Below, piece after piece: positions 15,245 through 16,444 of a stretch of DNA of 64,000 nt (position 1 is its first letter; every line of letters starts with the position of its first letter). Position numbers and translations under genes: made by a program. Under the pieces are notes generated by a model. That model did not search any database, had not been told where the DNA came from, and worked only from the letters and a program-made list of their open reading frames with translations. The stretch is from Bacillota bacterium (GTDB taxonomy: Bacteria; Bacillota; DTU025; MWDF01): assembly GCA_029565935.1 (NCBI GenBank), contig JAKQNF010000015.1, forward strand, positions 1-64,000. Direction: 5' to 3'.

Positions 15245-15370
15245 TGGCTATGGCACGTTCCTCGCTTCATCCGGGCCTTCAGTAGATTCTATGATGAGGA
15301 TCCGCATTAGTCGTATAATTATATATACACAATGTTCGATAATCAGTTCTTTAAGGGGTGAGGGGATGAC

Positions 15371-16444
15371 ATGCGCAAACAAGTATATGTAATCGCTTTG
15401 CTGACGCTAATTCTGTCATTGTGCTTTATGTCCGCATCCGCTGCCGGCGCCGACTGGGCGTTACGAGTCGACGGCGCAAAGACCCCTGTCCTTTTACCTG
15501 ACGGCGGTATCGCAGTGATATCGGGCAGCAAGGTCGTCGCTGTAAACGCGGATGGGAACACGAAATGGAGCTGGGACGCTGGCGGACAGGTCAAATTCTT
15601 GGCGACCGATGATGCCGGAAATCTCTATGCCGCGCTTAATAAAACCGTCTTCAAAGTATCCGGCGCAGGTAAGATGATATGGAAGACCGATGCGTTCGGG
15701 GAAGTATACTCGTTCGCCTTCGTCGAAGGCAAGCTACTGGTCGGATGGGCCAACGGCCTATTCGAGCTCGATGATAAAGGGAAGCTTCTTTGGGAATACT
15801 ATATGCCGGAGGACTGCTGATTCCCCACGATAGTGGGACCGGTCTGGTCCCTGAGCTACATGGGTAACGGAAAGTGCATACTAGTGGGGAAAGTATTCTT
15901 TGACGTCACCAATCCCAATCCCGTCGACGGCTATGATTACATCAACATGTTCAACATCAGTGACGGCAATACCGTAGCCCAGTTCAAGGCGGTAGAGCCT
16001 TTCACCATAAGGTTGATAAAACCCGTGAGCCAGACGAAAGCGCTAATATCTGCCGATTACTCTGGCCTGGTCAGCTGGAACACGGTCGACAAGTACCTTT
16101 ATGAGTGGAGGCTCAAGGTGGATCCTCCGAAATACGTTTGTGTCGGCCAATCGAACCAGGCCCTGATAGTAGGCAAGGACGGCAAGGGTATATCTACGGT
16201 CGACATAAAGAAAGGCACCCAGCTAAAGCAATCATCATATACTGAAACGGTCTTGGGAGAACCTATTTTCATCGGTTCGCGGTACTATGTCCCGGTCAAT
16301 GGCGGGCTGATGGTGCTTGGAACTAATCTAGAGACGGTGTCGCGGTATAACCTGAGTGGACTGAAAGGTTCTGTATCCCTGCTGCCGGCAAAGGACTCGA
16401 TATACATCGTGGGTGACAATCTACTTGCTAGATACGGTATCTGA
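15371..16444 (+). CDS. Predicted secreted selenoprotein with PQQ-like beta-propeller repeats (in-frame UGA = Sec150)
   Basis: 357 codons if the single in-frame TGA at 15818-15820 is read through. The N-terminal signal peptide (about 1-27, ending ASAAGA) predicts export. The rest is a run of short beta-rich repeats of the PQQ-like propeller kind, each pairing a Gly-Asp-Gly or Gly-Lys turn with a strand, for example LPDGGIAVISGSKVVAVNAD and DDAGNLYAALNKTVFKVSG. The repeat pattern continues unchanged after the TGA, so both halves are one protein. Codon 149 is Cys and codon 150 is TGA, giving PEDC-U-FPT, a vicinal Cys-Sec pair. A SECIS-like hairpin follows at once. A terminator lies after the final stop. 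Role: probably extracytoplasmic redox chemistry (inference). The alternative is a nonsense-mutated gene or a sequencing error. Confidence 0.78.
15818..15851 (+). promoter_or_regulatory. UGA (Sec) codon and bacterial SECIS-like element
   Basis: TGA at 15818-15820 is followed by a minimal hairpin at 15835-15851: GGGACC, loop GGTCT, GGTCCC. That is a perfect 6-bp stem with a 5-nt loop, and the loop begins 20 nt after the TGA. E. coli fdhF mRNA has the same GGUCU apical sequence 18 nt after its UGA, which SelB recognises. A second short stem, CCCAC-GATA-GTGGG (15824-15837), overlaps its base and could compete or stack. Confidence 0.75.

What the first reader, a model, noticed from the sequence alone, without database searches (positions are those of the whole stretch)
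15371..16444. Probable new selenoprotein: secreted PQQ-like beta-propeller with a single in-frame UGA
Two ORFs that look separate (15371-15820 and the one beginning at 15833) are in the same frame and separated only by TGA at 15818-15820. The propeller-repeat pattern, hydrophobic strand spacing and codon style are continuous across it, there is no frameshift, and one strong terminator follows the second half. The TGA is codon 150, straight after Cys149. I know of no described selenoprotein with this fold, and the signal peptide suggests selenium-dependent redox chemistry outside the cytoplasm.
Basis: partly seen in the sequence, partly recalled or inferred. Interest (0 to 1): 0.92.

Follow-up and report, generated by a model that had tools for sequence, protein, structure and literature searches.

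The report
Secreted propeller selenoprotein family
A bacterium from a little-known Bacillota lineage reads a stop codon as the selenium amino acid selenocysteine inside an exported, propeller-shaped protein; all ten copies found in four related genomes do the same beside a conserved cysteine, which makes this a selenoprotein family that a 2026 catalogue does not list.

Summary
The frame 15371-16444 is interrupted only by TGA at codon 150, directly behind Cys149. The same genome has three more paralogues (about 25-35% identical); two congeners and one genome of another family of the order carry six more copies. All ten have exactly one internal TGA in the same alignment column, behind an invariant Cys: CxxU in seven, CU in the window copy and its two orthologues. 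Behind every TGA, at fixed spacing, lies a hairpin of the published bacterial SECIS type. The genome has selC (tRNA-Sec, UCA), selA, selB and selD (itself with an in-frame TGA); its Trp tRNA is CCA. The 200-odd codons after the TGA are under purifying selection. AlphaFold gives a confident beta-propeller running through the TGA. No Cys-containing homologue was found, and none of the 110-plus families in a 2026 catalogue is a propeller. Cys and Sec are the only invariant residues with reactive side chains, so I infer a periplasmic Cys-Sec redox site in an inter-blade loop. Sec incorporation and substrate are not tested experimentally. The distribution is narrow: 4 of 12 genomes of the class, no others in a 399-genome phylum sample.

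The parts
15371..16444 (+). Selenoprotein gene, 357 aa with Sec at 150: exported PQQ-like beta-propeller (family copy A)
15355..15366 (+). Purine-rich ribosome-binding-site-like stretch before the ATG
   Evidence: read by eye
15371..15445 (+). N-terminal signal-peptide-like sequence (RKQ, hydrophobic core, ASA-AGA); no lipobox
   Evidence: by eye; model: helix 2-18, then low confidence 19-24
15815..15817 (+). Cys149, invariant in the family (resolving partner of Sec, inferred)
15818..15820 (+). Sec150 codon TGA, invariant in ten of ten homologues
15835..15851 (+). SECIS-like hairpin: stem GGGACC/GGTCCC (6 bp), apical loop GGTCT, 14 nt behind the TGA; overlaps the codons for G156-P157-V158-W159-S160
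   Evidence: criteria from PMC13188914
16465..16497 (+). Terminator-like hairpin behind the gene
   Evidence: chance expectation 1.2 such sites, so weak

Best explanation
The gene encodes one member of a selenoprotein family. SelB with Sec-tRNA(UCA) recognises the hairpin just behind UGA150 and selenocysteine is inserted instead of termination (inferred; all parts are present). The protein is exported to the periplasm of this Omp85-bearing organism (inferred) and folds as a PQQ-like beta-propeller of about eight blades (predicted). Sec150 and Cys149 (C-x-x-U in the paralogues) lie in the loop between the last strand of blade 3 and the first strand of blade 4, and I infer that they cycle between selenol/thiol and selenenylsulfide: a thiol-selenol oxidoreductase or electron-transfer site on a propeller scaffold, not a PQQ enzyme. 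My estimates: Sec decoding 0.97; exported propeller 0.9; Cys-Sec redox chemistry 0.65; substrate not known.
For: Ten homologues, ten internal TGAs in one column next to an invariant Cys; other invariant residues are only G, W, P, V and the initiator M. Complete sel locus: tRNA-SeC with anticodon tca, SelA, SelB, and SelD with its own in-frame TGA. SECIS-like hairpin at identical spacing in all ten, 58 of 60 pairs formed against 62-75% when the partner is slid by one; nine of ten pass a strict version of the published model, against 5% of internal codon positions. Gly codon GGA/GGG in ten of ten (background 0.40), Ser codon TCC in eight of eight (0.25), R/W interchange only among NGG codons. 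dN/dS after the TGA 0.07-0.22 in four orthologue comparisons with measurable dS. AlphaFold pLDDT 88, pTM 0.82, strands 139-143 and 154-165 flank Sec150. Omp85 present in the genome.
Against: No Cys-containing homologue was found, so the usual Sec/Cys exchange test could not be made. Pair covariation is weak because the helix hardly varies (104 of 500 shuffles reach the score). Copy C of this genome has a weaker hairpin (5 of 6 pairs, two of them G-U) that fails my energy cut-off. No protein, selenium or activity data. The copies lie in unrelated neighbourhoods with no shared partner gene, so context does not name a substrate.
Confidence: 0.85

Rival explanations
1. TGA 150 is a true stop: two separate genes or a decayed pseudogene.
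For: Table 11 reads it so; open frames behind a stop are not rare in this genome. A GTG occurs at 15833.
Against: Same TGA column in ten homologues at high synonymous divergence, strong purifying selection on both sides, no conserved start codon behind the TGA, and either product would be a partial propeller.
Confidence: 0.02
2. UGA is read here as an ordinary amino acid (Trp or Cys) by a changed code or suppressor tRNA.
For: The frame is open if TGA is sense.
Against: TGA ends 39 of 105 ORFs; tRNA-Trp has anticodon cca and the only UCA tRNA seen is tRNA-SeC; TGA occurs once per gene at one site with a SECIS-like hairpin.
Confidence: 0.01
3. It is a selenoprotein, but Cys and Sec bind a metal ion rather than do thiol-selenol redox chemistry.
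For: CU and CxxU pairs could bind soft metals; some listed CU selenoproteins are metal-related, e.g. MbdU and HgcA (PMC13188914). SELENBP1, a propeller protein linked to selenium, is reported as a copper-dependent thiol oxidase (abstract of PMC10362175).
Against: No other conserved ligand (no invariant His, Asp, Glu, or Met other than Met1) in ten sequences.
Confidence: 0.2
4. A PQQ-dependent dehydrogenase in which a vicinal Cys-Sec pair stands in for the vicinal disulfide that caps PQQ in quinoprotein alcohol dehydrogenases.
For: Propeller of about eight blades; the window copy has Cys and Sec side by side (from memory, methanol dehydrogenase has an adjacent Cys-Cys disulfide over PQQ).
Against: No invariant Glu, Asp, Asn or Arg for PQQ and its metal; Pfam and NCBIfam give no PQQ-dehydrogenase match; seven of ten members have CxxU, not CU.
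Confidence: 0.05
5. A BamB-like scaffold of outer-membrane assembly in which Sec is incidental.
For: Best natural structural matches include BamB (TM about 0.7) and an Omp85 gene is present.
Against: Match to the BamB equivalog model is far below its cut-off (22 of 285 bits); no lipobox; four scattered paralogues; strict Sec conservation implies chemistry.
Confidence: 0.05

Closest known systems
PQQ_2/BamB-type beta-propellers (PF13360; BamB, YxaL, designed Cake/Tako8)
   Same: Repeated-blade propeller; profile and fold matches
   Different: Carries Sec and an invariant Cys between blades 3 and 4; not a lipoprotein; far below the BamB equivalog cut-off
CxxU / CU redox selenoproteins (e.g. GrdA, AhpD-like, CC/Se motif family, KCU-star; PMC13188914 Table 1)
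   Same: Cys-x-x-Sec or Cys-Sec pair, bacterial-type SECIS
   Different: Propeller scaffold instead of the listed domains; no Cys homologues found
SELENBP1 / SBP56 methanethiol oxidase
   Same: Propeller protein linked to selenium and thiol chemistry (abstracts of PMC10362175, PMC10277263)
   Different: Not known to be a Sec-decoding gene (own knowledge); no sequence match seen here; reported as copper-dependent
Bacterial SECIS of E. coli fdhF
   Same: Small apical loop containing GGUCU a short way behind UGA (E. coli loop recalled, not compared here)
   Different: Stem sequence and spacing differ

Membership tests
Selenoproteins (bacterial) | In-frame UGA conserved, or exchanged with Cys, in homologues | tested here: met
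   10 of 10 TGA in one column; no Cys form found
Selenoproteins (bacterial) | selC, selA, selB, selD in the genome | tested here: met
Selenoproteins (bacterial) | SECIS hairpin: loop 3-9 nt, stem 4-16 bp, G in first two loop bases, 16-37 nt from UGA, MFE <= -7.5 | tested here: met
   Window copy: loop 5, stem 6, spacing 20, -10.3 kcal/mol; nine of ten copies pass, C_G000 borderline (model from PMC13188914)
Selenoproteins (bacterial) | Selenium in the purified protein | not testable with these tools
   Needs 75Se labelling or mass spectrometry
PQQ_2-type beta-propeller (PF13360) | Curated profile match and propeller fold | tested here: met
   35.7 bits against cut-off 27.6; AlphaFold and Foldseek
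BamB (TIGR03300) | Equivalog score and lipobox | tested here: not met
   22.2 of 285.2 bits; no lipobox in the N-terminus (by eye)
Quinoprotein (PQQ) dehydrogenases | Conserved acidic/polar residues for PQQ and its metal; family profile | tested here: not met
   No invariant D, E, N or R; no profile match
Thioredoxin-fold selenoproteins | Thioredoxin-like fold | tested here: not met
   All-beta propeller model

The most novel reading that the evidence does not exclude
An obligately Sec-dependent family with no Cys-containing counterpart, on a propeller scaffold, expanded to at least four paralogues in one 1.8 Mb genome in which no Sec formate dehydrogenase or GrdB was found, so that periplasmic propeller selenoenzymes may be a main reason why this lineage keeps the Sec trait; they carry out a selenol-based extracytoplasmic reaction not yet described.
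Probability: 0.35. Interest if true: 0.82.

Novelty: new variant of a known kind. Interest (0 to 1): 0.72.

Why it matters
It adds a fold not named in the 2026 list of known and predicted prokaryotic selenoproteins, places Sec in an exported propeller, and shows a family without detectable Cys homologues: the class of selenoprotein that homology-based tools such as deep-Sep state they may miss (PMC12013277). Standard annotation would split each gene into two fragments. It makes a concrete, testable case of selenium redox chemistry outside the cytoplasm in a Bacillota lineage that carries an Omp85 protein.

Tried and rejected
A named-genome protein search with the four-paralogue alignment found nothing, probably because near genomes are left out or the patterns were too strict; a CxxU-plus-SECIS DNA pattern then found 6 stretches, 3 real (two named genomes) and 3 chance. 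Rfam had no useful match. Base-pair covariation was not informative. The GRDB search was empty, but its controls did not ring either. Other in-frame TGA candidates in the window (62879 +, 24795 -) look like chance.

Full report
Observation. The frame starting at ATG 15371 runs to TGA 16442-16444 and is broken only by TGA 15818-15820, codon 150, straight after Cys149. Continuity of the frame alone proves little: at least 9 other ORFs in about 130 kb of this genome also have more than 200 open codons behind their stop, usually the next gene in phase.

Homologues. A search of the window's own genome (1.8 Mb, 98% complete) with the read-through protein found three paralogues on other contigs, 25-34% identical, each with exactly one internal TGA. 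Two other species of the genus carry three and two copies, and a genome of another family of the same order carries one; every one of the ten has a single TGA in the same alignment column. The motif is CxxU (CDTU, CATU, CFTU) in seven and CU in the three A orthologues. Terminal stops vary among TAA, TAG and TGA; the internal one never does. Four separate assemblies agree, which makes a base-call error untenable. Two are named: Firmicutes bacterium ADurb.Bin153 (MWDF01, the same genome as G001) and Bacillota bacterium Go_SlDig_bin_374 (JAGOKM01, the same as G002).

Selection. Between orthologues with measurable synonymous distance, dN/dS is 0.16-0.27 before and 0.07-0.22 after the TGA; for the most distant A pair synonymous sites are saturated before the TGA and the ratio after it is 0.31. 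The part behind the TGA is therefore maintained as protein-coding sequence in this frame.

Machinery. Contig 31 holds tRNA-SeC with anticodon UCA, selD, selA and selB within about 7 kb. selD itself has an in-frame TGA at codon 19 in the motif SKAG-U-AAK, a known type of selenoprotein (UxxK in PMC13188914). tRNA-Trp has anticodon CCA and TGA ends 39 of 105 ORFs, so UGA is not simply a sense codon. SelB is found in 10 of 12 genomes of the class.

SECIS. Fourteen bases behind every TGA stands a six-pair hairpin with a five-base loop of the form NGUNN; in the window GGGACC-GGUCU-GGUCCC. The published model asks for a loop of 3-9, a stem of 4-16, a G in the first two loop positions, 16-37 nt spacing and <= -7.5 kcal/mol (PMC13188914): nine of ten copies pass a strict version, against 5% of internal codon positions and 4-17% of synonymous recodings of the same peptides. 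C_G000 is borderline. Pairing is 96.7% against 62-75% one column off, but covariation does not stand out because the helix hardly varies. Codon choice points to constraint on the RNA: Gly GGR 10/10, Ser TCC 8/8, and R/W interchange only among NGG codons; related sequences are not independent, so these counts overstate the strength.

Protein. Pfam gives PQQ_2 above its cut-off. AlphaFold on the ten-row alignment gives pLDDT 88 and pTM 0.82, an all-beta propeller that I count as eight blades from the strand list; Sec150 lies in the loop between strand 139-143 and strand 154-165, that is, between blades 3 and 4. Nearest solved folds are designed propellers, BamB and YxaL, TM about 0.7. The N-termini look like signal peptides without lipobox (by eye), and the genome has an Omp85 protein, so a periplasmic location is likely. 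Among invariant residues only Cys149 and Sec150 have reactive side chains.

Function. Inferred: a Cys-Sec redox pair in an inter-blade loop of an exported propeller. The copies stand in unrelated neighbourhoods, so no partner or substrate can be named. A metal site is the main rival for function; a PQQ enzyme is unlikely for lack of conserved ligands and profile match.

Distribution and novelty. With a ten-row profile the family occurs in 4 of 12 genomes of the class and in no other of 399 sampled genomes of the phylum at E <= 1e-12. Other phyla were not searched by profile; a strict DNA pattern over 84,980 species found only the two named genomes of this genus. The 2026 table of more than 110 prokaryotic selenoprotein families has no propeller, and the words propeller and PQQ do not occur in that paper; literature searches found none. 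Most subscription literature and preprints were not covered.

Noticed in passing
L014:7737-8795 (+), contig 31 of the window's genome: SelD is itself a selenoprotein: in-frame TGA at codon 19 in SKAG-U-AAK; ordinary start calling would cut off its N-terminus.
   Followed up: yes
L017:8188-8832 (-) and L014:5361-6059 (-): Two weakly related lipoproteins (21% identity, E 8e-07) without Pfam match, one near propeller copy D (also in G001 and G002) and one near selC.
   Followed up: partly
L058 (G000:C23:26553-27422): An Omp85 protein in this Bacillota genome, which suggests an outer membrane.
   Followed up: partly
L057 (G000:C3:132815-132976): The only molybdopterin-Fe4S4 oxidoreductase found has no in-frame TGA; no Sec formate dehydrogenase was seen.
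   Followed up: partly
L015:8643-9704 (+): Exported-looking protein of 353 aa without Pfam match, directly behind propeller copy B on the same strand.
   Followed up: no
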